This document shows, in pieces, positions 855 through 22,121 of a stretch of 22,121 nucleotides of DNA. Position 1 is the stretch's first letter. Every line of letters begins with the position of its first letter. The notes beneath the pieces are model-generated. The model did not search any database. It was not told where the DNA came from and worked only from the letters and a program-made list of their open reading frames with translations. The DNA lies in contig MU647037.1 in assembly GCA_026770585.1 (NCBI GenBank), forward strand, positions 118,760 to 140,880. Reading direction: 5' to 3'. Made by a program: the position numbers and the translations under genes. This DNA is from Baffinella frigidus (Eukaryota > Cryptophyceae > Cryptomonadales > Baffinellaceae).

Positions 855-1370
855 TAATCGAAACAATACCTTGCATCACCCCTGTAACAATTCCTACCTC
901 TCAACAATACCTAGCTCAATTCTTGCCTCATAACAATGCCTACCACAACAATACCTACCGTGTCAACAGTACCTATTGCGTATAGGTAGGTAGTGTTATC
1001 GCTTGGACTGGCGGGTTTGCACTAGTGTACCTTGCTTGCTGGACGAAAACGGGTGTGTTGTTGTTTTCTTCGTTATCTTTATTACTCTCCAGCCTGGAGA
1101 TGAGTGATCTGAAAGTCTATGAGCATTACAAGGAGGGGATAATCAAGTTGAATCCGAGAATAAGAATTAGGTTTGGAGTCTCAGGGTCTCGGCCGTACTC
1201 AACCCTAAACCCTAAACCCCAAACCCCAAATTTCAGAAGGGCTCTGGCGGTATGCTTTTTTAGTGTCGGCGTGGTTATCAATAACTAGCGTGCTGTGTGG
1301 TTCTTTTGTTGCATATTCATAAACTTCTTTCAACTCATCTTCCGTTAGATAAGCGCTAACTTCTGGATTT
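855..1370. repeat. AACAATACC-type degenerate minisatellite and unassigned flank
   Basis: Repeated AACAATACCT-like units run from about 700 to 985, interrupted by the foldback at 742-845. A short CCCTAAA patch lies at about 1200-1230. I see no gene. Confidence 0.5.
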
Positions 1371-5399: not shown

Positions 5400-8300
5400 T
5401 CAAAAACACGCGCCGTCCGCTTGCAGGTACCAAAGACCGGCTGCTTTCTGCCTCCGAATTTTCTCTCGGCCTCCTGTGATCCAGTTGCTGTTTAGGATAA
5501 CCATGGAAGCAGGGTCCCAGTGAGAATAGTTCATGCTCCACACGTTTTCGTTGAAAATCGTCTGATAGATGGTTCCCTGCGCGTACACCGACCGATCCAG
5601 GTACTTCACTTGGAGCGCCCCAGCTTTGGAATCGAACACACATGTCTCAGCGTCATCGACAGACCCAAACGGCGGGAGGCACAAAACATTGTAAAAGGAA
5701 GGCTGTGCGGACGTTCCGGATATCGCACGTGAATGCAGCTCGTCAAACGCCGAAATCGCAGGCGTGGTTGCAGGAACGAAGTAGCAGCCAGAGTTGATGC
5801 GCCGGAATTCGCTCCGCGGCTCCGAGCGTTGTTCAAACTCAAACAAGTCCGTCTTTGCCGAGTTATCGATGAACGGTGCATTGGAAAGCACTGACATTGT
5901 TGAAAAGTCCAGAATGTGCTCCACCGGATTCTTGAACAAAACCACGTCAGGATCGAGGTAAAAAACTGAGTACCCGAGGACCAACGCTTCCAAAACTGCT
6001 GCGGATTTCAACTTGGTCTGTTCGATACTGTCTTTCGGCAGAGAGAAGAGGAACACCCCATGGCCTCTGACTGCTGCCCAGTTGAATGTTTCCTGGTCGA
6101 GAGCCGCAACAAGGTACTCCCGGATATTCAGGCGCGCAAGATTGCAAAGAAAATTCGAGAGCATCTCTGTCTGCCACGAATGAGCCGCGGTCATTATGAC
6201 GACTCTGTGCTTCGAAGCCCGCGTTTTCAGCTGTTCCTCCAGTGACAACGGCGATGGGTGTTCCTGCGGAGATCTCTCAGGGTCGCCCAAGACCCTCAGG
6301 AATTTCTCGGTCTCGCGGGATATCTCCGTCGTTCGCTCGAAAGTCACCGCCAACGCTTTGTCGCACTCAGGCCCACCAAGCGTAGAATGTGTGCAGTTTG
6401 CCTGCTTCAGCTTCTTAGAAGACCCAGACATGCAGCCGAAATTCCTCCTGAACTGTCTGTTCTCGAAGCAGACTCGGTCACACTGGTTCCCACAGCACTT
6501 CCCCTCCCAAGGGGTCTCGCACGCAGTGCCTTGTTGCCACTTGTGCTGCAAAGTACGGTTTGGGAACAGAAGGGAGGGGGACGGGAGAAACGAGAGGTGG
6601 CGGTTGATGAGGTACTCGAGAGACTCCTTTGCTTGCCCCCACTTCTCGATTGTTGCACCTGAGATAGTGTGGCCGCCGATTACCAACAAAGAGTACCAAT
6701 CAGTTTTCACCCCCCCCACAAGGTGCTTATGAGACTGGCTGATGGGTTCTAGTCGGCCATACTAAAGCCAACACGTCTGTTGGAGCTTATTGCACGTAGG
6801 AATTCCTGATAAGTTTACCCCTTAAACTCCCAACTCACAACTTCCGTCCAAACTCAGTTCGCAAACCTGAGAAAAGCTGCCGCGAATGCAAATGACACTT
6901 TGGTGAGGTGGAGTTAGAACCCATCCGGAATATCATATGGGCGGCCGACATGGGGTACAGTAGTCGCACAATGCGTAGCATGTGCGGCTCTGACGCTGGT
7001 TGTTTGGCACCAGGGGGGCTTGATGTGATCCGAAAGGAAGCATGGCTTTTCTGCAGATAAGTTCCAGTACCCGTCCATGTTGGGAGCTCGAAGAACCTAA
7101 AGGACCTCAAGGACCTAAATTCCCAACCTTTTTTCTGACCTGAGAAGAGCTGCCGCGGGTGCAAATAATGGGTTCTAGTCGACCATACTAAAGCCAACAC
7201 GTCTATTGGAGCTTTCTTGCACGTCGGAATTCCTGGCAAGTTTACATCTGAAACTCTGAATTTCTTTCCAAACTCAGTTCTCACCTGAGAAGAGCTGCCG
7301 AGAGTGCGAATGATGCGCGAGCTTCAGCACTTTGGTCAGGTCGATCGCGTGCCTGGTTCAGGGTTGAAGGTTTGAGGTTTAGGGTTGGGGGTTCAGGGTT
7401 TAGAGTGTGGGGTTTCAGGTTCAGGGTTTAGAGATGATGGTTTGGGGTTTACGGTTTACGGTTTACGGTTTAGGGTATTGGGTATAGGGTTTGGGGCATA
7501 GGGTTAAGGGTTAAGGGTTGAGGGTTGAGGGTTTAGAGTTAAGGGTTTAGGGTTCAGGGTTTAGGGTTTAGGGTTTAGGGTTTAGGGTTTAGGGTTTGGG
7601 GTTGAGGGTTTCTGGTTTCGGGATCAGGGTTTAGGGTGTTAGGTTTAGGGTTTGGGGTTTAGGGTTTAGGGTTTAGGGTTTGGGGTTTAGGGTTTAGGGT
7701 TTAGGAATTAGGGTTTAGGGTTTAGGGTTTAGGGTTCAGGGTTTATGGTTTATGGTTTATGGTTTATGGTTTGGGGTTGAGGGTTTAGGATTCAGGGTTC
7801 AGGGTCTAGAGTTTAGGGTTTAGGGTTTAGGATTAAGGGTTAAAGGTCAAGAGTTTAGGGTTTAGGGTTAAGGGTCAAGGGTTGAGGGTTTAGGGTTTAG
7901 AGTTTAGGGTTTTAGGGTTTAGGGTTTGGGGTTTAGGGTTTATGGTTTAAGGGTTTAGGGTTTGGGTTTTAGGGTTTAGGATTCAGGGTTTAGGGTTGAA
8001 AGGTCGGGGTTTGGGGTTAATGGTTGAGGGTTAAGGGTCAGGAGTTTAGGGTTTAGGGTTTAGGGTTTAGGGTTTATGATTTAGAGTTTAGGGTTTAGGG
8101 TTTAGGGTTTAGGGTTCAGGTTTTAGGGTTTAGGGTTTAAGGTTTAGGGTTTAGGGGTCAGGGTGTACGGTTTAGGGTTTAGGGTTTAGGGTTTAGGGTT
8201 TAGGGTTTAGGGTTTAGGGTTTAGGGCTTACAGTTGAAGGGTTTGGGTTTAGGGTTTTAGGGTTTAGGGTTTTGGGTAAACCGAGAAGTCGACGAAAGCA

Positions 8301-9598
8301 TCATGTCCAAAAACCAGTTGTCAAACTCAGGCCTGCCGTACCTGGTTTAGGGTTTAGGTTTCAGGGTTCAGGTTTCAGTTTTGGGGGGTTATGGTTTAGT
8401 CTTTAAGGTTCAGTGGTTAGGGGTCAGGGGTTAGGGGTCAGGATTGAAGGTTAATGGTTTAGGGTTTGGGGTGTAGGGTGTAGGGTGTGGTGTGTAGGCT
8501 TTAGGGTGTAGGGCTCAGGGTTTCGGGTGTGAGTTGTGGGTTTTACCAGAAGGGGGGGATCGCCACGTCGATCAGCGGGACTCGGCTCGGCACTTCATTC
8601 CACAGCCAAAAATCGTACCCTCCAGCCATGTGTTTCTTCTCTTGGCCATCAGGTAGAAGATCGAATCTCTCAGAGACCGCAAACCAACATTCCGAAAAGA
8701 AAGGACGGCCATGTACGAGCTTGTCTGTAAATTTCATAAACGGATGTGCCTCGCGAAGGGGGTGCTCCTTCCATCCAAACGCTTTCAGAGAACGAATCGC
8801 AGAACCGAGCGCGGCTGGGTCCCGGAGCACAATGTCAGAGTTCGCGAGGCCCATCACAGTGTTGTCACACATTTTCCGCATCGTTGAAATCATGGCATCA
8901 AATCGTGGCAGTCCGTCGACGGTTGAATCCACGCAGAGATAATAAATGCCACGCGACTCTGCGAACTCCACCGCCGAGATTTCGTTGACGAAGAAAACAA
9001 TGGTGACGTTGAAGGGCGCCGCCTGCAGCCAACTCCTAACGGCACGCTCTTGCCGCGCTGCACGTTCCCCCGTGAAAGGAGCGGGCGCCATGAATATCAC
9101 CGCGGATTTACACAACTCCTTCGGCAAAGTGTGAAAATGGCAAATCGGGGAAGCGGGTGCGATGTTTGCTTGCACTGGGAACGCCTTGCCGGTGGCGTCA
9201 ACGGCCTTGTCCGCGCCTTCCTTTCTCACCGGCAGAAGATTGTCGGTAACTCGGACAACGCCGGCCTGCGCAGGCTGAAGGGGCGAAGAAGCTGTGGCAG
9301 TTGTTCCTGGGGAAAGCCGAGGGTCGTCCCCGCCTTCCTTTCGCACTGGCACAAGATTTTTGGGTGTCTGACCACGAGGGGATTCTGCCGGCAAAAGCCG
9401 AGGCGCAGAGGTGAGTTCGCCAGGGAGCATCTTGTGGCTAGAGGCAAGTTCGACGTGGATGAACTGGAAGGAAGCAATCACCATCGACAAGCCAGCCAAC
9501 ATCACAAAGATGGCATGTGTTCTCCCCGCACGTCGGCCAGGGGAGCTGCCTCCGCCTTTTGCCCTGCCGTCTGCTCTCAGTTGCTTCCGGCTGAACAT
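5400..9598 (-). CDS. Two-module type II membrane glycosyltransferase, four exons, 812 residues
   Basis: Exons 9598-8547, 8341-8282, 7352-7285 and 6658-5400 join in frame (1052+60+68+1259 bp, junction phases 2, 2, 1) with GT-AG introns. The start is the first ATG (9598); the frame is open further upstream but only with a GTG. Residues about 29-48 form one hydrophobic segment after a basic N-terminus, as in a Golgi/ER signal anchor. A low-complexity stem contains a repeated PVRKEG motif (residues about 83-88 and 122-127). Residues about 164-400 form a first GT-A-like module with ANSDIVL (252-258, DxD-like), GYDFWLWN (327-334) and, across intron 1, YGRPEFDNWF. A Cys-rich linker (about 440-457) leads to a PF03407 Nucleotid_trans (GT77-type) module at about 546-803, with YLDPDVVLFKNP (DxD at 629-631) and a C-terminal NSNWITGG...GLW block. 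Both modules should transfer sugar from nucleotide-sugars in the secretory pathway; donor and acceptor are unknown. Seen: exons, motifs, frames. Inferred: that both modules form one transcript. Confidence 0.8.
6659..7284 (-). repeat. Intron 3 (626 bp) with exon-3 copies and a dispersed repeat
   Basis: The intron contains two extra copies of the 3' end of exon 3 with its donor (about 7137-7170 and about 6865-6905). A duplicated stretch of about 110 bp follows (7168-7284 against 6747-6866, both with GCCAACACGTCT). A dispersed repeat at 6903-7008 also occurs inverted at 3353-3465. Positions 7030-7118 carry another dispersed repeat, also seen near 16035 and 19390-19550. The bases just before exon 4 resemble 19655-19700. 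Confidence 0.7.
7285..7352 (-). other. Exon 3 of the glycosyltransferase gene (68 bp)
   Basis: The acceptor CCCTGAACCAG and the strong donor CAG|GTGAGA bound 22 codons containing AIDLTKVLKLAHHSHS. This matches the D-x-T...H-x-x-H pattern that follows the GRxxxDNW block in related transferases. It enters in phase 2 and leaves in phase 1, matching exon 2 and the acceptor at 6659-6660 of exon 4 (TCTCAG|GT). Confidence 0.8.
7353..8281 (-). repeat. Intron 2 (929 bp), degenerate telomere-like array
   Basis: On the plus strand this is more than 100 units of TTTAGGG with variants (TTGAGGG, TTCAGGG, TTTATGG, TTTACGG). In sense orientation it is CCCTAAA. The array reaches both splice sites: the donor reads GTTTACCCAAAACCC and the acceptor CCCTGAACCAG. 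Unit degeneracy argues for an old interstitial tract rather than a living telomere. Confidence 0.85.
8282..8341 (-). other. Exon 2 of the glycosyltransferase gene (60 bp)
   Basis: This 60-bp exon is flanked on both sides by telomere-like repeat. It reads YGRPEFDNWFLDMMLSSTS in phase 2 and completes a split Trp codon left by exon 1. The preceding acceptor is CCCTAAACCAG; the donor is CG|GTTTACCC. It restores the G-R-x-x-x-D-N-W block expected shortly after the IPPF end of exon 1 in this kind of transferase. Without it the gene appears to stop at 8543, which is intron read-through. Confidence 0.8.
8342..8546 (-). repeat. Intron 1 (205 bp), mostly telomere-like repeat
   Basis: The donor is TG|GTAAAACC. 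The body, in sense orientation, is degenerate CCCTAAA/CCCTACA units, and the acceptor CCCTAAACCAG is itself a telomere unit with an altered end. Confidence 0.75.
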
Positions 9599-10182: not shown

Positions 10183-13100
10183 GTAAGGAGGCTGGGCGCG
10201 CGGGGGTAACCCAAATCGAGGTTTCGATCGTCTCTTGCTCCTGATTTCGCGAGATGCCTTCCCTCGATCGTGTGCAGAACTCGATCAGAGTAGATGGAGG
10301 CCGTGCTTCAGGAAACAAACACCCCGAGTGGTGAATCCTCAAACGGCAAGGCAGACAAGCGAGAGTGTAGGAGGGGGACGTGGAAAGTTGCGGGGGTAGA
10401 TCTAACAGCGAGGATCGTGAGTGGAGGGTGGTATGGAGAACCAGTCGCAGACGGGGTGTCCATCAAAAAGTCCACCTCAAGCGTTCTGTGAGGACCACGC
10501 TGACGGAATTCCGCGGGTCAGGTGGGGGGGAAGGCTCTCTCCAACAAGCCGCTTGGGAAAGCGACGCTGCAGGCGGACACCAGCTGGCGCATCAGCCTGG
10601 CCCTCTCAGGTCCCGACTTCATCTCCACAAAAGTATTAATTAATTGCTTTTACTACACAAATGCTCTACTATTACTTTTATGAGCAAATCGTGTAGTAAT
10701 TTTCGTTGCCCGGAAGCAACTAATGAATAGAGCGTTTGCGGTAGAGCGTTTGCGGTAGTTGTTGTCCGTTTTGAAAGTGCGATTTTCCGGTTTTCCGGTT
10801 TTCATTTGCTCCCCCCCCCGATTCATTTGTACCAGAGAAGTGTCCATTTAAAACATTCAACGACCTTTACAACATTTTAAAAACCCGTAAAACCGGAAAA
10901 TCGCACTTTCAAAACGGACAACAATTACCGCAAACGCTCTAATTGTTGTCCGTTTTGGACGTACGGTTTCCCCGTTTCCACGTTTTGAAATGGACTTACA
11001 GGGTTTTAGAGCGAGTAGTAAAACAAAAGTGTTGTTTTAAATAGTACCAGAAGCGCGTTTCCGGTACTATTTAAAATCCTCGTCACGTCCTATAAGTCCA
11101 ATTTCAAAACGGGGAAACGGGGAAACCGTACGTCCAAAACGGACAACACTTACCGCAAACGCTCTACTTATATGGAGATTAGACTGCTGCCATCCACCAG
11201 CAACCCGCAGCAGCTTTTACCGGGTCCTTGCAAGAATCCGGGTACGAATGGTTTTTTTTGGTTTCTTCGTAGGACCCTACAATAGCAGTCCCTAGGGACC
11301 TCAGAATTGCTGCCGGGAGATACGGACAGATATATCCGGTCTAGCTGAAATTTACTACAGTACCCGATCCGGTTACAAGCTGCAAACGGGTTGCTGGTGG
11401 ATCATCAGCCCGCAGAAGAATCAGAGTGTCGCCAGATGGTGGCTGGTAGGAGCCTGGTGCGAGGCTCCCACCAGCCACCAGCAGAGAACCAAACCAGGGC
11501 GACGAGGCCTGTGGTAAAACAACCTTCAGAGTAAAGGCTCAGCCTTTAGTGTGCAGGGGAAGTTCAACTTTTGCGATCGTCGATTTGGTTCACTTCTGGT
11601 GGCTGGTGGTCGTTCTGCTTCACAGCGAATCTGCTCTCAGGCCTCGCGCTCCATGTTCCACGCTCTCCACATTCCACGCTCTCTTCTCTTTCCTAACATG
11701 TCCCTGGCTGAGCAGGAGCGCTGGGTGAGGGGGGGGCGCCCGTCGACCTCTCGTGCAAGGTCAGAACACCTACCCTGCATGCAAATGATTATTCCGATGA
11801 AACTTCATAGATTCCGACGCCTTCGCGAGGCAATAATGGCTCCAAGCCCCGTACGAATTTTGTATGGGACAAGACCATGGACACGACTGTGAGGTCGTTT
11901 AAATGTCCATCAAGGGTATTTTAGGGTCGTGTCCAATGTTTGGTACAAAATTTGTACCAGGGCTTGGAGCCATTATTGCTTCGCGAAGGCGTTGGGAACT
12001 ATGAAACTGGACGCTGCTGAAAACCGCGGACTGCCTTTTTTGGAAGGCACGCTAGCTCGCTCCTGCACCGTGAGAACCGACTGCTGACGTTTCTGAAACG
12101 CGAGGTTTTGAGCGAGCGCTTGCCACACGGTGGGCTTCGAAGGAATTTTCGTCCATAAATCTGATCGAAATGTCGGTTGATAAAATGTCGTTGTACCGAG
12201 ATATTCTTCATTAGCACCACGAAAATAAACAGACCGATCTGCAAAGCCCACTGTGTGGATTGATACTGACCCCGGATTGAACCGACAGGCGGTTTTCGTG
12301 GAGGAGGAAGGTTATGAGCCTCCGCAGGGCATCATCAAGTTCGAGGGGAGCAAGTACCCCCCGAATCCGAATCCGAAACTCCTTCACGCCTTTTTAAAAA
12401 ATGAGCCCTCGCAGCAAGCTGAAACCACTTATGTCTTTCTATTTTCTGGTACAATGAAGCTGTGGTAAAGTCGGATTTCGACGTCCGGCGGGTAGTGCAA
12501 CGACCAAACCGATTTAGGTATTTGAGCGCCCTTTGAGGGCTGGTGGAGGAGGAAGGTTATGAACTTCCGCAGGGTATTATCAAGTTCGAGTTCGCCCCGA
12601 AACCCTAACTCTAAACCCTAAACCCTAAACCCTAAACCCTCAACCCTAAACCCTAAACCCCAAACCCCAAATCTAAACCCTTGACCCGAAACCCTGAACC
12701 CTGAACCCTAGACCCGAAACCCGCACCACTCAGCCGAAAATCTCTCGAATCTCCACCAAACAAGGCCATTCTGATTCATGGACTGCTACATCGAAACCCT
12801 CCTTCAAGCTCGCCCTGTGTGTTCGTGCCATGCTGGCGGGGGGGTGCACCCATCCAACAGCATCAACTCAACGCTCCCCCTGACGCAAATCGTCGCCGGC
12901 TTGAAAAGAATCGTCGCGGATGACTAGCATGATCCAATTGGGTAGTGCCCTTCGTTGCTCACACACAGTTAAATAATACTTTAACAGAGATTTCACAGCA
13001 CCAACTCAACGCGTACCGTAAAACACATGGTCGCTGGCTTGAAGGATCTCCCCCACGCAGTTTCCTCGGGGGACAGCGGCCGTCGTAATTCTTCTACAGA

Positions 13101-16100
13101 GAGTAGTTTCACAGCACCAACTCAACGCGTGCCGTAACACACATCGTCGCCGACGTGATAGAGTTTCCACACGCAGTTTCCTTGGGGGGCAGCGGCCTCG
13201 TGGACCTGACACACATCGTCGCTGGCTTGAAAAGAATCGTGGCTGACTTGAAGGGGTTTTCCCACGCAGTATTCTTGGGGGGCAGCGGCCGTCGTGGAAC
13301 CTCTCCGAGGACCCTGCGGTAAGAAACGCCAGCTCCGTGCTAGTAAAGTTGGACACGCCATAAAATCCATCTAGACGTCTAAATATTTTTGTTTATACTG
13401 GTGCCTGCTCTGAAAATAATGATGGCGTGCCTAGATTTACTCGGACAGAGCTAGAAACTGCACCCTGAAACCAGTGCCGCCTGAAACCAGTGCCACTGCA
13501 CCCTGAAACCAGTGCCAACGACTCTGGTTGCCTTCGTCCGTGAATGGATCGGCGCAATCTCATACGCAAAGACTTATAATTTATAAACTGGATTCAACGA
13601 AGTTTACTACACAGAACTATCGTTGATAGTAATATAACAGCAAACGTGTAGTAATTTTCATTGAATCCAAGTTTATGAATTACAAGTGTTTCGACATGAG
13701 ATCCGCTACGTGCAGACCCGCCACATTGGCAATGCGTTCCTGCGTTCCTAGGACTCACCCTTGGAGCCCTTTCCCCCTGAGGCGGGCCCATCCCGGACCC
13801 GGTCCTCACACTCACCACTCATCATTTCTGCGCTCGGAACGATGGGCATTTCCAATGTGCTGAGGAAAGGTAGGATCCAACTCTCAACTTGGCGCCAGAA
13901 CTTCGACGGAATCGAGAAATGATGAGTGGTGGGGGCACTCACGTCACCGCGATGCGTCCCAACGTCGCTGAACCCCACGGAATCACTGCACGTCACGCAT
14001 CAACCTCACCAAAAGCGAACGCGCTTCGTCAAAATCCCACTCGAGAATGCTGGAGGATCCTTTTTGCATGTGGGGTTGTAAAAATTTGTGCCAGGATAAC
14101 CAACCTCGTGCCTGGCCTAATTTCGCCCAGTTACGTGACCAACCTCCCAAACGCCACACATCAACCTCAACAAAAGCGAACGCGCTTCGTCAAACGGCAG
14201 CGCCTCCTTGACTGCGAGGGTCCCGTCACTGTCAAAAGTCGCGCTTCGTCAAAAGTCACCGCTCACCATTTCTGTGTTGCGTCGGTCCTCGTGACCGTCC
14301 TCGTGACCGTCCGCGTAAACGTCCGCGTGACCGTCCGCGTGACCGTCCGCGTGACCGTGGGGTGCAGGCGGAGGGGTTCGACAAGGCGGGGTTCTGGATC
14401 TGGGGGCTTTTCGAGGAGCCAAAGTACCCCTTCATGCTCCTCGAGGTTTCAACCCTAAACCCTAAAAGCATCCTTCCTTTTCCTCCCTTGTCAACTTTCC
14501 CACCCATGTCAACTTATGCGCCAGCTTTGCCACTGCAGGGCGAACCTCGCCAGGGCGTCAAGTGGAATTTCAGTTACAAGTCTTGTTCAAAATTTCGTAT
14601 CAGGGTTTTTTTGTTCTGCGTGACAGTGCGGACGTGGAAAGGACGAGGAGTTGCTTGTTTCCAGGTCATGCATACTAATTCAGTACCACGAAACGAAACG
14701 TCGCGTTCTGAAATTTCAGGAAGTGTCTTGGCGTGGGTCCTCCTGAAACGGGTGCTGACTCGAACAGCCTTAACAGGTTGCGAGCCTCCCCCTAGAGGGA
14801 TAAATGCATATTAATATGGTAACGATGTGCGCTTGTTCGCTGTTTGAGCCGCTCAAGAATCTCATCTGTCTGAGAGCAGCGGTACCCATTCCAGGGACAT
14901 GCCATAAGTGGCCACCTCCACTTCTCCCGCACTGTCTCTTGACACTGCGCGTGTTCGCAGTGTGAGGTCCTCAAGGAGAGCGTATTAATAGGGTAACTTA
15001 AATGCGTATTAATAGTGTAGCCCCGGAGTGTTACATGCGTTTTGATAGGGCCACAACGTGCGCTTGTTCGCAGTTTGAGGTTCTCAAGGAGATCAGCTGC
15101 CTGATGCTGACTCAGAGAGTGATAGAGCTATTCCGGTAGGACTTGTCGCGTTTTCGATTTCGCGACTTCGAGACTTCAAGACTTCATTTGTACCATGAGA
15201 TTTGAAACGGTGTGTTTTAAAACGTTTTACGCCCTTTAAAACCTTTTTGAAGTCTGAAATTTTGAAATCTCGAAGTCGAAAACGCGACAAGTCCTACCGG
15301 AATAGCTCTACCTGTTCGAGTGCAGCGGTGCTTATTCCAGGGACATGCCAACTGCACATCCACTTCTCCCGGACTGGCGCTTGACACTGCGCGTGTTCGC
15401 AGTTTGAGGTGCTGGAGGAGACCCGCTGTCTGAGAGCAGCGGCACCCATTCCAGGGACATGCCATAAGTGGCCACCTCCACTTGTCCCGGACTGGCGCGT
15501 GACACTGCGCGTTTTCGCAGTTTGAGGTGCTCAAGGAGATCCCGCTGTCGTCGGGTGTGATCCCCGTCGGGCGAATGTACGGCCAGGTACCACCTCTAAA
15601 CAAGTTAGAGTGACCGAACATCCCTTCGTAGCCCTCTGATGGATGTTACGTGCAAATAACATGCAGCGCCAAGAGAAGCGGGGCAGACGCAGAAGTTTGA
15701 TCCCCGTCAGGCGAAAGTACGGCCAGGTGCGGCGTTTTCCCTGCAAACTACACCAACGCTTACAATCGATTTTTATACAATCGACTACTACACCAACGCT
15801 TACAATCGACTTACAATCGACTACTACACCAACGCTTACAATCGACTTTTGTTCTGTTCGCATGGATAGCCTCCCGTCCCCACCGGGCGTCTTGAGGACG
15901 TGGTTGAGTGTGCTCGACACACGCTCCCGTGCGTTGAGGACGTGACGAGTGTGTCCGGCACAGCGCTGTGCCGAGATGTTGCCCGGCTTGATCCCCGTCG
16001 GGCGAATGTATGGGCAGGTACGGCGGTTTTCCGTTAGGTCCTTTTGATTCTTCGAGCTCCCAACATAGGCGGGCACTGGAACTGGTTTTGCAGGAAAGCC

Positions 16101-16681
16101 ATGCTTCCTTTCGGGTATCTTGTGGCCACGAACAGAATGAAACCATCCCCGGGGGAAAGTTGACGGTTTAGTTCCAGCATCGTCAGCTTTCGGCTTTGTT
16201 TATTTTAGCAGAATCTTCTGCATTGACTATGTTGGTCCATTTCCGTCATCTTCTCTGTCTCTTCACATCGCTCCACAGCTCGGCCCCAGATCGAATCGCT
16301 GTTGGAAATGGTGCGACATCCATGCCGGAAAAATATGCGGCTTCTTCTTTAGACTTGAACACTGCTAGGAGACTTGGAGCCATCGATTCGACCTTTGGCG
16401 CTTCGCGGTGCGTGCTGCTGGCGTTGGTCCGTGTTTTGCAGTGCCTTTGATCCGAGTTGTGCAGTGGCTCGATTCCGGTGGTGTACAGCGATTTTAAACG
16501 CATCGCAGTGACTTTGACGCGGTGACTTTTGACGCATCGTTGTGACTCTAATGGCGTGCAGTGCAAGGTGACGCGCGACAAGGAAAAGGGCGTCTCGATC
16601 AGTGACGGCACCCTCTCAGTCAAGGAGACGGAGAGGATCGATGCTGACCTCGTCGGACTCTCCCAGGCCATCCTTTACGCT
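9982..16681 (+). CDS. Candidate multi-exon gene for a plastid-targeted protein of unknown function (partial)
   Basis: Six plus-strand blocks look coding. 9982-10182 is a bipartite plastid leader; 10312-about 10482 contains GTWKVAGVDLTARI; 10522-10632 contains ADTSWRISLALSGPDFIS; 12289-about 12345 contains VEEEGYEPPQGIIKFEG; 14368-14445 contains FWIWGLFEEPKYPFMLLE; 16562-16681 contains RDKEKGVSISDG and ERIDADLVG. The junctions I can place are compatible with phase 0, except the unplaced end of the 12289 exon. The order and the WIWGLFEEPKYPF and RDKEKGV styles remind me of conserved, uncharacterised chloroplast proteins of plants and algae, but this is memory, not a search. Introns carry MITEs (10644-12008), minisatellites and CCCTAAA arrays. 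No 3' end was found. Two in-frame TGA codons at 10489 and 10501 need a tiny intron or mean decay. It could be two genes, or a pseudogene interrupted by repeats. Confidence 0.4.
10312..10482 (+). other. Candidate exon 2 of the plastid-targeted gene
   Basis: The acceptor GTGCTTCAG|GAA continues the first exon in phase 0. The block reads about 57 codons, including GTWKVAGVDLTARI and GGWYGEPVADGVSI. The end is uncertain: a weak GTTCTG donor at 10483 keeps phase 0, while a better GTGAGG at 10488 gives phase 2. A GTGAGT at about 10409 could also end the exon earlier. Confidence 0.4.
10522..10632 (+). other. Candidate exon 3 of the plastid-targeted gene
   Basis: 37 codons in the same frame as the previous block lie between GGGTCAG| and AAA|GTATTA. 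They read GKATLQADTSWRISLALSG and GPDFISTK. Only about 39 bp with two TGA codons separate it from exon 2. A MITE with GTGTAGTAATTTTC ends starts about 12 bp after it. Confidence 0.35.
10644..10710. mobile_element. Short foldback with GTGTAGTAATTTTC ends
   Basis: Arms TTTACTACACAAATG / GTGTAGTAATTTTCG. Relatives lie at 283-347 and 13583-13676, the last with arms extended to TAAACTTGGATTCAATGAAA. Confidence 0.7.
10728..11166. mobile_element. Composite nested foldback, TAGAGCGTTTGCGGTA ends
   Basis: Outer ends are TAGAGCGTTTGCGG (doubled at 10728 and 10742) and TACCGCAAACGCTCTA at 11166, with a further end at 10941. One hairpin (10742-10941) uses GTCCGTTTTGAAAGTGCGAT arms. The next (about 10941-11166) uses GTCCGTTTTGGACGTACGG arms and encloses a third palindrome at 11035-11076 (AAATAGTACC...GGTACTATTT). 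Confidence 0.8.
11192..11402. mobile_element. 211-bp foldback element, ATCCACCAGCAACCCG ends
   Basis: A perfect 16-bp terminal inverted repeat with partially matching inner sequence (TTTTACCGGGTCC). Non-coding. Confidence 0.65.
11438..11479. repeat. 17-bp-stem hairpin
   Basis: GGTGGCTGGTAGGAGCC, an 8-bp loop, then GGCTCCCACCAGCCACC; one mismatch. A GGTGGCTGGTGG echo lies at about 11598. Confidence 0.7.
11480..11801. other. Unassigned stretch in the candidate intron
   Basis: The plus strand reads openly from about 11551 to 11892 after a possible acceptor GTGTGCAG|, but there is no ATG start or recognised motif, and the frame runs into the next foldback. Not called as coding. Confidence 0.3.
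11802..12008. mobile_element. 207-bp foldback element, ACTTCATAG ends
   Basis: Arms of about 48 bp, with cores GCAATAATGGCTCCAAGCCC / GGGCTTGGAGCCATTATTGC, and an inner GGACACGAC / GTCGTGTCC pair. Confidence 0.8.
12289..12345 (+). other. Candidate exon with VEEEGYEPPQGIIKFEG
   Basis: The acceptor ACCGACAG| opens AVFVEEEGYEPPQGIIKFEG. The frame stays open to a stop at 12466-12468, so the true 3' end is uncertain (possible donors at about 12347 and 12465). A 48-bp near-copy lies at 12544-12591. Confidence 0.4.
12544..12591 (+). pseudogene. Decayed duplicate of the 12289 exon
   Basis: 48 bp match 12298-12345 with four substitutions. Three of these are silent third-position changes and one is Pro to Leu, so the copy looks protein-constrained. 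It lacks the acceptor context of the first copy, has an in-frame TGA just upstream, and runs into a CCCTAAA array. Confidence 0.5.
12598..12725 (+). repeat. Telomere-like array, CCCTAAA
   Basis: Degenerate CCCTAAA/CCCTGAA units follow the decayed exon copy at 12544-12591. The array ends at CACCACTCAG|, after which a frame is open for about 40 codons (about 12731-12880); I note this frame but do not call it. Confidence 0.75.
12850..13320. repeat. Tandem repeat of about 116 bp, three to four degenerate units
   Basis: CAGCACCAACTCAACGCG recurs at 12996 and 13112, with a diverged copy near 12857. CACGCAGTTTCCTnGGGGG and CAGCGGCCGTCGT recur within each unit. Confidence 0.75.
13440..13517. repeat. 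Short CCTGAAACCAGTGCC tandem repeat
   Basis: Three copies, two of them preceded by CTGCAC. Confidence 0.75.
13583..13676. mobile_element. 94-bp foldback element, TTGGATTCAATGAAA ends
   Basis: Longest-armed member of the GTGTAGTAATTTTC family: ATAAACTGGATTCAACGAAG / CATTGAATCCAAGTTTAT. Confidence 0.75.
13757..14285. other. Dispersed repeat, foldback and 36-bp duplicate
   Basis: 13757-13808 repeats 4214-4266 (GGAGCCCTTT...GACCCGGTCCTCACA). 13813-13931 is bounded by perfect 17-bp arms CACCACTCATCATTTCT. A CATCAACCTCAnCAAAAGCG unit is duplicated at about 13997 and 14158. Confidence 0.6.
14286..14358 (+). repeat. 12-bp tandem repeat GTGACCGTCCGC
   Basis: Six units with small drift, ending about 10 bp before the acceptor of the exon at 14368. 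It is C/T-rich in part, so it may serve as or disturb the 3' splice region. Confidence 0.8.
14368..14445 (+). other. Candidate 78-bp exon with FWIWGLFEEPKYPF
   Basis: GGGGTGCAG| opens 26 codons, AEGFDKAGFWIWGLF... to MLLE, and the exon ends at GAG|GTTTCA in phase 0. The intron then continues AACCCTAAACCC. Directly upstream is a 12-bp GTGACCGTCCGC tandem repeat. The aromatic-rich, Pro/Gly-patterned block is hard to explain as chance. Confidence 0.5.
14446..14825 (+). other. Intron-like stretch after the 14368 exon
   Basis: Starts GTTTCAACCCTAAACCCTAA and then becomes non-repetitive. The frame stays open for some distance but without motifs. Confidence 0.35.
14826..15555. repeat. Degenerate tandem repeat of about 115-130 bp interrupted by a MITE
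   Basis: GCAGCGGnACCCATTCCAGG and TGACACTGCGCGTnTTCGCAGT recur near 14876, 15326 and 15441, with a partial copy at 15056. On the minus strand the units read a Cys-rich peptide (MACPWNGxRCSQT) in shifting frames. The foldback at 15123-15310 splits the array. Confidence 0.7.
15123..15310. mobile_element. 188-bp foldback element, TAGAGCTATTCCGGTAG family, copy 2
   Basis: About 90% like copy 1 at 2957-3136, with TAGAGCTATTCCGGTAGGAC / TCCTACCGGAATAGCTCTA ends. Confidence 0.85.
15555..16030. repeat. GATCCCCGTCGGGCGAATGT repeats and ACACCAACGCTTACAATCGA repeats
   Basis: The first unit occurs near 15560, 15700 and 15990. The second is tandem at 15746-15846 (three full copies plus partial ones). 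Confidence 0.7.
16031..16560. other. Dispersed repeat, then unassigned sequence
   Basis: 16035-16115 contains CTTCGAGCTCCCAACAT and AGCCATGCTTCCTTTCGG, shared with 7030-7118 and 19390-19550. A pyrimidine-rich acceptor-like CTTCACATCGCTCCACAG lies at about 16260-16277, before a frame open to about 16450. Too weak to call a gene. Confidence 0.4.
16562..16681 (+). other. Candidate 120-bp exon with RDKEKGVSISDG
   Basis: 40 codons start after GCGTGCAG| and end at GCT|GTGAGA, phase 0 on both sides. They contain CKVTRDKEKGVSIS, VKETERIDADL and GLSQAILYA. The intron immediately becomes a CCCTACA/CCCTAAA array. Whether it belongs to the 9982 gene is inferred from strand, phase and order. Confidence 0.45.
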
Positions 16682-16689
16682 GTGAGAGA

Positions 16690-17783: not shown

Positions 17784-17904
17784 TACAGGGGTACCTCGCT
17801 CATAAGAAACTGCCTCCCCCTAGGACCCTACGGTAGGACTATGCCTCGGGCCCTATGGTAGTCCTAGGGGAGGGGCAGATTCTTATGGGCGAGGTACCCC
17901 TGTA
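17784..17904. mobile_element. 121-bp foldback element, TACAGGGGTACC family
   Basis: Full-length copy: TACAGGGGTACCTCGCTCAT / GGGCGAGGTACCCCTGTA. Confidence 0.9.
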
Positions 17905-17909
17905 CTTAC

Positions 17910-18325
17910 ACGTGGTTGCGATTCGCAGGCTCGTGCAGTTGGAACCTTCACGCAGGCCTCTGCAGGGCTAGCGGGGTCTTTTTCGTGGGCTCTGCACCCC
18001 CGACTTGAAGCATTGCACAGGACCAGTTTCAGTTCCAGAGAGTGGACGAACTATCGCGTTTGGTCAACGCGCTGGAACTAAATTAAGAAAACGCCGACCC
18101 ACCAACCGTCCGTCGAGCGAGGGTGTACGTATCCCTTAAGTGGCCAGTAGGCTCCTACGCCCTACCGTAGGGCCCTAGGACCTGCCTAGGGCGAGTTAGG
18201 GCGAATAACAGGTCCTAGGGCCCTACGGTAGGGCGTATGAGCCTACTGGGCACTTACGGGATAGCGTGGTTGTACTAACGCGTGGTCGCGATTCGCAGGA
18301 TCGTCCAGTGGGAACCTTCACGCTC
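17910..18325. other. Duplicated CGTGGTnGCGATTCGCAGG block around a foldback
   Basis: 17912-17953 and 18271-18314 share CGTGGTnGCGATTCGCAGG and GGAACCTTCACGC. Between them, at 18130-18263, lies a 134-bp member of the TATCCCTTAAG family with a 30-bp central expansion. Confidence 0.7.
18130..18263. mobile_element. 134-bp TATCCCTTAAG-family foldback
   Basis: Ends TATCCCTTAAGTGGCCAGTA / TACTGGGCACTTACGGGATA. It is longer than the 104-bp copies through an insertion between the CCTAGG arms. Confidence 0.85.
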
Positions 18326-18623: not shown

Positions 18624-18744
18624 TACAGGGGTACCTCGCCCATGAGAAACCGCGCCCCCATAGGACCCTACAGTAGGCCTATGCCTAGGGCCCTATGGTG
18701 GTCCTAGGGGTAGGGGCGTTTCTTATGAGCGAGGTACCCCTGTA
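18624..18744. mobile_element. 121-bp foldback element, TACAGGGGTACC family
   Basis: Full-length copy with TACAGGGGTACCTCGCCCAT / GAGCGAGGTACCCCTGTA ends. Confidence 0.9.
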
Positions 18745-18791
18745 GGACCACAAGGCCGTGCGTGTCCTTAATTTCAAGTACCCCCTGTAGG

Positions 18792-18986: not shown

Positions 18987-19107
18987 TACAGGGGTGCCTC
19001 GATCACAAGAAACAGCCATCCCCTAGGGCCCTACAGTAGGCTTACGCCTATGGCCCTACGGTGGTCCTAGGGGGGGTGCGGTTTCTTATGATCGAGGTAC
19101 CCCTGTA
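18987..19107. mobile_element. 121-bp foldback element, TACAGGGGTRCC family
   Basis: Ends TACAGGGGTGCCTCGATCAC / TGATCGAGGTACCCCTGTA. Confidence 0.9.
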
Positions 19108-19185
19108 CTTTGAGAGAGGGCTCGCACGCGAAACACGACTCGGATTGAACTTTCCTGTACGTGCTCGAGAGGAACTGCATGTGGG

Positions 19186-21196: not shown

Positions 21197-21318
21197 TACA
21201 GGGGTACCTCGCTCATAAGAAACTGCCCCCCCCCCCAGGACCACCGTAGGGCCCTAGGCATACGCCTGCTGTAGGGTTCTAGGAGGGGGTTGTTTCTTAT
21301 GAGCGAGGTACCCCTGTA
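21197..21318. mobile_element. 122-bp foldback element, TACAGGGGTACC family
   Basis: Full-length copy; one base longer than the others within the C run. A CCTTCGCTGGnACTCGTCGG unit occurs just before it and again at 21082. Confidence 0.9.
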
Positions 21319-21589
21319 GTCTGAATACGGCCACAAAATCTAACACTGGCTGCGTGACTTGCCGGTGAACACCTCACGCTTACCTGCGCTACCCACCTCC
21401 TCTCTCCGAATGGTGTTTCCAGTAGAGCAAGCCCGACCAGGAGGCGTGCTAGCACGGCCAGCCGAAGGAAAGAACAGATGGGGCTGCAGGGTGTGCTGCA
21501 GCCATTCACGGTTGTCTGTAACATCCCAATTTTAAGAATCCGAAATTGAGCGATATGGTGCCATGCTGCTCGGCTTTGACACGATGGCA
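21319..21589. other. Unassigned non-coding stretch
   Basis: No motif, repeat or convincing frame seen. Confidence 0.3.
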
Positions 21590-21648
21590 AACCCACAACC
21601 CCAACCCTCAACCCTCAACCCTCGAACCTCAAACTTCAACCCACAGCC

Positions 21649-21680
<32 letters not shown>

Positions 21681-21876
21681 TGTACTGGTTTAGGGTTCAG
21701 AGTTTGGGGTTTTGGTTTTAGGTTTTAGGGTGCTGGGGTCGAGGGTTGAGGCTCGAGGGTTGAAGTTTGAGGTTCGAGGGTTGAGAGTTGAGGGTTGGGG
21801 TTGAGGGTTGAGGGTTGACGGTTGAGGGTTGAGGGTTGAGGTTGAGGTTCGAGTGTTGAGGGTTGAGGGTTGGGGT

Positions 21877-21929
<53 letters not shown>

Positions 21930-22121
21930 GGATGAGAGTTGAGGGTTGAGGGTTGAGGTTTGAGGTGTGAGGGTTGAGGGTTGAGGGTTGTGGGTTGTGG
22001 GTTGAGGGTTGAGGGTGCAGGGTGCAGTGTGTAGGGTTTAGGGTGTAGGGTGTAGGGTGAAGGGTGTAGGGTGTAGGGTGTAGGGTGCAGGGTGTAGGGT
22101 GTAGGGTGTAGGGTGTAGGGT
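21590..22121. repeat. Telomere-variant arrays in head-to-head arrangement
   Basis: CCCTCAA units on plus (21590-21680) switch at about 21680-21690 to the opposite strand: first TTTAGGG/TTGAGGG (to about 22015), then TGTAGGG/TGCAGGG to the window edge. Unit type is locally homogeneous. Confidence 0.9.

What the first reader, a model, noticed from the sequence alone, without database searches (positions are those of the whole stretch)
7353..8546. Telomere-type repeats make up two introns, splice sites included
Introns 1 (205 bp) and 2 (929 bp) of the transferase gene are nearly all CCCTAAA in sense orientation. Both acceptors are modified telomere units (CCCTAAACCAG and CCCTGAACCAG), and the intron 2 donor starts GTTTACCC. 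A 60-bp exon sits between the two arrays. The exon frames and a conserved D-N-W motif show these are introns, not a broken chromosome end. It suggests telomeric DNA seeded, expanded inside or was captured as spliceable introns.
Basis: partly seen in the sequence, partly recalled or inferred. Interest (0 to 1): 0.88.

Follow-up and report, generated by a model that had tools for sequence, protein, structure and literature searches.

The report
Introns made of telomere repeats
In an unidentified eukaryote, genes carry introns filled with chromosome-end-type repeats that stop exactly at the splice site, which suggests that telomere-like DNA inserted into genes can become new introns.

Summary
Introns 8546-8342 and 8281-7353 (minus strand) are CCCTAAA arrays whose edges lie 2-4 nt from all four splice sites; intron 3 has none. 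Relatives read unbroken across the exon junctions. No RNA was available.

In the 382-Mb assembly CCCTRAACCAGG occurs 1752 times, against 95 for CCCTRAACCGAG and 291 and 528 for two other registers. In fetched regions CC|AG sits at the array's 3' end in 24 of 25 cases; other variants do so in 5 of 47. Conserved exons follow it directly, and joining flanks across arrays restores kinesin, aldo/keto reductase and Sel1 domains.

Of 81 arrays, 8 have direct repeats of 7 bp or more across them, against 0.44 expected: a mark of insertion at AG|G sites. So I favour intron gain by inserted telomere-type arrays.

Against: the two window introns show only 4- and 2-nt repeats, the non-telomeric intron 3 has a 9-nt one, and other window arrays lack splice signals.

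The parts
8547..9598 (-). exon 1: hydrophobic N-terminal segment (by eye, no prediction run) and most of the first, unclassified domain
   Evidence: open frame; 207 of 304 aligned residues identical in P0001, 201 of 288 in P0003
8342..8546 (-). intron 1, 205 nt, degenerate CCCTAAA array, donor GTAAAA, acceptor CCCTAAACCAG
   Evidence: 82% within one mismatch; edges 3 and 2 nt from the splice sites
8282..8341 (-). exon 2, 60 nt, YGRPEFDNWFLDMMLSSTSR
   Evidence: 19 of 20 residues identical in P0003, 18 of 20 in P0001, 7 of 8 aligned in P0004
7353..8281 (-). intron 2, 929 nt, CCCTAAA array, donor GTTTAC, acceptor CCCTGAACCAG
   Evidence: 96% within one mismatch; edges 4 and 2 nt from the splice sites; no AG in the last 259 nt before the acceptor
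7285..7352 (-). exon 3, 68 nt, HAIDLTKVLKLAHHSHSRQLFSG
   Evidence: 22 of 23 residues identical in P0004, 21 of 23 in P0001, 20 of 23 in P0003
6659..7284 (-). intron 3, 626 nt, no telomere repeats; two further copies of the exon 3 tail with donor; control intron
5400..6658 (-). exon 4 with stop codon; Nucleotid_trans domain PF03407
   Evidence: (E 3.5e-17 on the open frame 6761-5403); relatives P0005-P0007 at 55-59% identity

Best explanation
The two introns belong to a genome-wide class of introns in this organism: C-rich-strand telomere-type arrays, in sense orientation, whose last unit runs CCCTRAACC into the acceptor AG|G of an exon. I think many arose by insertion of the array into coding DNA at AG|G sites, with duplication of 5-12 bp of the target. 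Then the first copy of the target gives the donor (|GT, or |GC), the second gives the acceptor (AG|G), and splicing restores the old coding sequence. The body of the array offers few competing signals, because CCCTAAA holds neither AG nor GT, while the reverse strand holds AG in every unit. Shown: the motif excess, its place at array ends, exons after it, domain continuity across it, and the excess of direct repeats. Inferred: insertion as the cause, splicing in the cell, and that introns 1 and 2 of the window are older, decayed members.
For: Window gene. Genome counts: CCCTRAACCAGG 1752, reversed control 71; CCTRAACCCAGG 291; CCCTRAACCGAG 95; CTRAACCCTAGG 528. CC|AG at the array 3' end in 24 of 25 against 5 of 47 for other two-base variants. 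AG-first array edges outside the selecting pattern: 12 of 16 in the CC register. Exons starting at the acceptor: protein kinase PF00069 E 1.7e-9 and CAF1C_H4-bd PF12265 E 7e-5, 2 of 10 submitted above the curated cut-off; the kinase's upstream exon ends ...VVTLW before GTAAGT in the same locus. Joined flanks: kinesin E 3.6e-8, aldo/keto reductase E 1.2e-8, Sel1 E 8.9e-8, each match crossing the junction, 3 of 6 submitted; kinesin aligns ungapped across it with KIF3B. Direct repeats of >=5, >=6, >=7, >=8 bp in 15, 10, 8, 5 of 81 arrays against permuted means 4.4, 1.2, 0.44, 0.14 and maxima 12, 5, 4, 2 in 1000; with independently found edges, 10, 7, 4, 3 of 68 against 3.7, 1.1, 0.44, 0.18, maxima 9, 5, 3, 3 in 500. 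Coding signal is stronger in sense than antisense after the array (59 of 85) and before it (58 of 78).
Against: 66 of 81 arrays show no repeat of 5 bp or more. The window's introns have only 4 nt (GGTA) and 2 nt. Intron 3, not telomeric, has a 9-nt boundary repeat, so such repeats may mark introns of this genome in general and telomere arrays may have grown inside them later. The kinase intron, about 400 nt, is telomeric only in its last part. Arrays that do not end in CC|AG also show some long repeats (3 of 86 at >=7 bp, permuted mean 0.51, maximum 4). In some repeat cases the donor would be GC, GA or GG rather than GT (L033, L062, L064, L080, L078; my reading). Six other window arrays lack an excess of splice signals at their edges. 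The regions were chosen by the motif, not at random.
Confidence: 0.6

Rival explanations
1. Takeover of old introns: introns existed first, some born with boundary repeats by another route, and telomere units captured in them spread by slippage until they filled the intron, up to the acceptor.
For: The kinase intron has an ordinary 5' part and a telomeric 3' part. Intron 3 shows a boundary repeat without telomere units. Most arrays have no detectable direct repeat. [quoted passage not shown] falciformis (PMC4287421, passages).
Against: It does not predict the one favoured register CC|AG: CCC|AG would splice as well but is six times rarer. It needs full replacement to within 2-4 nt of both ends, twice, in this gene.
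Confidence: 0.3
2. Introner-like mobile element: an element whose body happens to contain telomere-type tandem repeats spreads through genes with target-site duplication.
For: Repeats of 5-12 bp at the target and AG|G preference resemble introners; Amoebophrya introners have 3-5 nt direct repeats at the boundaries (PMC7789003, passages).
Against: No inverted repeats of 8 nt or more inside introns 1 and 2. Array lengths run from 19 to 923 nt with no shared non-repeat sequence noticed (not tested by clustering).
Confidence: 0.15
3. Not introns: pseudogenes or misassembly across repeats.
For: No RNA; assembly quality unknown; some fetched regions hold runs of N.
Against: Open 812-aa frame, conserved 60- and 68-nt exons, and domain continuity in three other places.
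Confidence: 0.04

Closest known systems
Interstitial telomeric sequences in introns of mammals
   Same: Telomere-type repeats in introns, arising in one step by break repair; none of the human ones in exons, 31% in introns, as random insertion would give (PMC7215372, passages).
   Different: Those lie within introns. Here arrays end at the splice site, mostly in one register, and can be the whole intron.
Telomere-like heptamer repeats of Eimeria
   Same: AAACCCT arrays dispersed through the genome (PMC4287421; PMC9131526; passages).
   Different: The passages do not describe arrays ending at splice sites or direct repeats. No period-3 array is in the repeat list of this window, whereas CAG repeats go with them in Eimeria.
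Introner elements
   Same: Many introns from one kind of repeated DNA, with direct repeats at the boundary (PMC7789003, passages).
   Different: Here the unit is a 7-nt tandem repeat and no inverted repeat was found in introns 1 and 2.
Intron gain by break repair or tandem duplication of AGGT
   Same: AG|G target giving both splice sites from two copies is the logic described for AGGT duplication (PMC3443670, passages).
   Different: Telomere repeats lie between the copies; 'telomer' and 'simple repeat' occur 0 times in that review's main text.

Membership tests
Spliceosomal intron | GT...AG ends | tested here: met
   all three introns of the window gene; some other arrays would need GC, GA or GG donors
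Spliceosomal intron | Removal restores frame and conserved protein | tested here: met
   window gene; 3 of 6 joined pieces elsewhere match a domain across the junction
Spliceosomal intron | Removed from RNA in the cell | not testable with these tools
   no RNA reads
Interstitial telomeric sequence | Tandem telomere-type units away from a chromosome end | tested here: met
   between exons of one gene; window lies at 118760-140880 of its contig
Interstitial telomeric sequence | Unit equals the organism's own telomere repeat | not tested
   contig ends were not examined; TTTAGGG type is inferred
Introner element | Many similar copies that are introns in different genes | tested here: met
   1752 motif copies; exons of several families after a few of them
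Introner element | Direct repeats at the boundary | tested here: inconclusive
   significant in a subset, 15 of 81 at >=5 bp; 4 and 2 nt in the window introns
Introner element | Inverted repeats inside | tested here: not met
   0 pairs of 8 nt or more in introns 1 and 2; not tested in others
Nucleotide-diphospho-sugar transferase (PF03407) | Match above the curated cut-off | tested here: met
   63.5 bits against 22

The most novel reading that the evidence does not exclude
Telomerase makes introns. At a break in an AG|G site, telomerase extends the antisense 3' end ...CCT with GGTTTAG GGTTTAG..., mostly starting at the same template position, which fixes the junction CC|AG; joining to the other end with fill-in duplicates the target, and the result is a ready intron: donor in the first copy, acceptor in the second, splice-silent body. 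(That mammalian telomerase adds repeats as GGTTAG is recalled, from no call.)
Probability: 0.3. Interest if true: 0.95.

Novelty: new variant of a known kind. Interest (0 to 1): 0.84.

Why it matters
Where most new introns come from is an open question. Here a single genome offers well over a thousand candidate sites with a favoured junction and, in a subset, target duplications, so that intron birth from telomere-type DNA can be tested directly by comparing strains and by RNA. It also warns that telomere repeats in an assembly need not mark a chromosome end.

Tried and rejected
Rejected: a broken chromosome end (exons on both sides); coding read-through (the exon 1 frame stops right after the donor); the idea that any array in the window is an intron (with a 10-nt margin GT before and AG after in 3 of 8, of which 1 of the 6 besides introns 1 and 2; background 0.51 and 0.52 per edge; reverse-sense control 4 of 8; with a 6-nt margin 3 of 8, again 1 of 6, reverse-sense 1 of 8); and P0001-P0004 as proof of intron gain, since P0001 and P0004 lack the non-telomeric intron 3 too and may be transcripts or retrocopies.

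Led nowhere: full protein limited to residues 140-460 (no relative at E <= 0.001); viral and prokaryote contigs (one search gave one Maribacter match, not used); Rfam and tRNA; NCBIfam; solved structures for exon 4 (best E 0.52). A plus-strand candidate gene (pieces near 12298, 14380, 16560) resembles a plastid-lineage protein only from memory; no search confirmed it. Of six joined pieces, three had no match above the cut-off (L043 weak TPR, L066, L030). Of ten, eight had none; a leucyl-tRNA-synthetase-like exon in L022 is weak (E 0.059) and a leucine-rich repeat in L029 is below the cut-off. In one search the best-scoring chain is a spurious repeat match; the next, an aldo/keto reductase, is E 1.2e-8.

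Full report
What was checked first. The window was read around the finding. The gene on the minus strand is exon 1 9598-8547, intron 1 8546-8342, exon 2 8341-8282, intron 2 8281-7353, exon 3 7352-7285, intron 3 7284-6659, exon 4 6658-5400: 2439 nt, 812 codons and a stop, no internal stop, three GT-AG introns. Allowing one mismatch, 7-mers of the CCCTAAA type cover 82% of intron 1, 96% of intron 2 and none of intron 3. Array edges lie 3, 2, 4 and 2 nt from the four splice sites. Exact units fall, unevenly, from 0.64 in the first 100 nt of intron 2 to 0.00 in the last 29 nt; intron 1 is at about 0.1.

Are the exons real? A search with the spliced 272-aa N-terminal part found four proteins at E <= 1 among 638 candidates. 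P0002 is the window's own exon 1 ORF. P0001 reads through all three junctions, P0003 through the first two, P0004 through the last two. By exon, identity with P0001 is 68% in exon 1, 90% in exon 2, 91% in exon 3. Exon 4 holds PF03407. None of the proteins bears a name, so the organism is unidentified. These relatives do not date the introns, since P0001 and P0004 lack intron 3 as well.

The genome. After eight unanswered requests the assembly could be searched: 382,457,362 bases in 1364 contigs, the window being C702:118760-140880. Controls of equal length: CCCTRAACCGAG 95; other registers of array and AGG, CCTRAACCCAGG 291 and CTRAACCCTAGG 528. The tool calls its counts lower bounds for common words.

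Where the motif sits. 20 regions of 3.5 to 8.6 kb and 60 of about 1.2 to 2.7 kb were fetched around listed motif places, in contigs C1-C7. In the first 20 and the window, CCCTRAACC with an array before it and AG after it is the end of the array in 24 of 25 cases; CCCTRAACC followed by CT continues the array (end in 28 of 240), by CC 4 of 38, by any other pair 5 of 47. Among array edges outside the selecting motif that meet AG at once, 12 of 16 are in this same CC register. So the register is not only an effect of my choice.

What follows the motif. Of ten reading frames starting at the acceptor, two match a Pfam family above its cut-off, a protein kinase from its first residue (YRAPELLLG..., E 1.7e-9) and CAF1C_H4-bd from residue 2 (E 7e-5). 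The kinase aligns with PHO85 from its first residue, and its preceding exon, ending ...[23 protein letters not shown] before GTAAGT, lies about 400 nt upstream; only the last part of that intron is telomeric. Over all usable cases a codon score from the window gene is higher in sense than antisense after the array (59 of 85, P 1.5e-6) and before it (58 of 78, P 6.6e-8) (trained on one gene).

Direct repeats. Reading the edges showed pairs such as AGGCATCA before and after an array (L062). The test was set after seeing such cases, but on all arrays: 90 found, 81 kept (5 dropped for N, 4 as duplicates). Exact repeats of at least 5, 6, 7, 8 bp occur in 15, 10, 8, 5, against permuted means of 4.4, 1.2, 0.44, 0.14 and maxima of 12, 5, 4, 2 in 1000 pairings of one array's left side with another's right. 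With edges found by another procedure the excess is smaller but stays: 10, 7, 4, 3 of 68, maxima 9, 5, 3, 3 in 500. Arrays not ending in CC|AG: 5, 5, 3, 2 of 86, maxima 11, 6, 4, 2, so within the range of the permutations. Flanks of 13 repeat cases were joined with one repeat copy; six protein-like readings were submitted and three match a family across the junction: kinesin, aldo/keto reductase, Sel1. The kinesin piece aligns without gap with KIF3B 221-259.

Reading. Insertion of an array at AG|G with target duplication explains in one step the donor, the acceptor, the end-to-end filling and the restored protein. The favoured register needs a cause; a telomerase that starts at GGTTTAG on the other strand would give it. 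That is inference. The window's introns fit the class by motif and filling but show only GGTA (4 nt) and GG (2 nt), so if they arose this way they are old. Intron 3's own 9-nt repeat warns that boundary repeats may be general here; the comparison with ordinary introns is the missing control. If introns were taken over later, the register remains unexplained.

Orientation. Sense AG counts are 4 and 4, antisense 21 and 110; intron 3 has 43 and 39.

Literature. Passages only: PMC7215372, PMC3443670, PMC7789003, PMC4287421, PMC9131526, PMC4501334, PMC3022908, PMC8226300. Listings showed no title on introns made of telomere repeats; several lists were cut, and only open-licence papers are held. Non-GT donors with AG|G acceptors recall dinoflagellates; that is memory, not a test.

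Verdict. Observation right; introns very probably real; part of a genome-wide class; birth by insertion favoured, not proven.

Noticed in passing
window 6659-7284 (-): Intron 3 has a 9-nt direct repeat TCTCAG|GTG at both ends and two more copies of the exon 3 tail with donor: looks like growth or gain by tandem duplication. A similar copied exon tail appears in the kinase intron of L029.
   Followed up: partly
L025, array at 262-1221 on the reverse-complemented locus: A 960-nt array in another register (CCTAG|G) with AAGGTGGAC before and AGGTGGAC after, as if inserted with an 8-bp target duplication.
   Followed up: partly
L065 and L086: Two arrays not ending in CC|AG with 11- and 10-bp direct repeats (GGTGTTCAAGG, CTCCTCAGCC).
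   Followed up: no
window 1195-1236 (+): A short telomere-like array between GTA and TTTCAG, like a 42-nt intron; no gene evidence.
   Followed up: no
window 12298-12345 and 12543-12590 (+): A 48-nt direct repeat, 92% identical, reading VEEEGYE(P/L)PQGIIKFE; the second copy abuts the array at 12596.
   Followed up: partly
window about 14344-14600 and 16557-16688 (+): Coding-like pieces followed at once by GTTTCAACCC and GTGAGAGAACCC repeats; perhaps a second gene with telomere-type introns, unconfirmed.
   Followed up: partly
window near 17786-17911, 18627-18745, 18987-19108, 21198-21319: Recurrent palindromic elements with ends like ACAGGGGTACCTCGCTCAT, MITE-like; another family with ends like TATCCCTTAAGTGACCA (seen by eye).
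   Followed up: no
window 21589-22121: Two arrays in inverted orientation meeting at about 21680, with CCCTAAACCAG at the joint and no exon seen.
   Followed up: no
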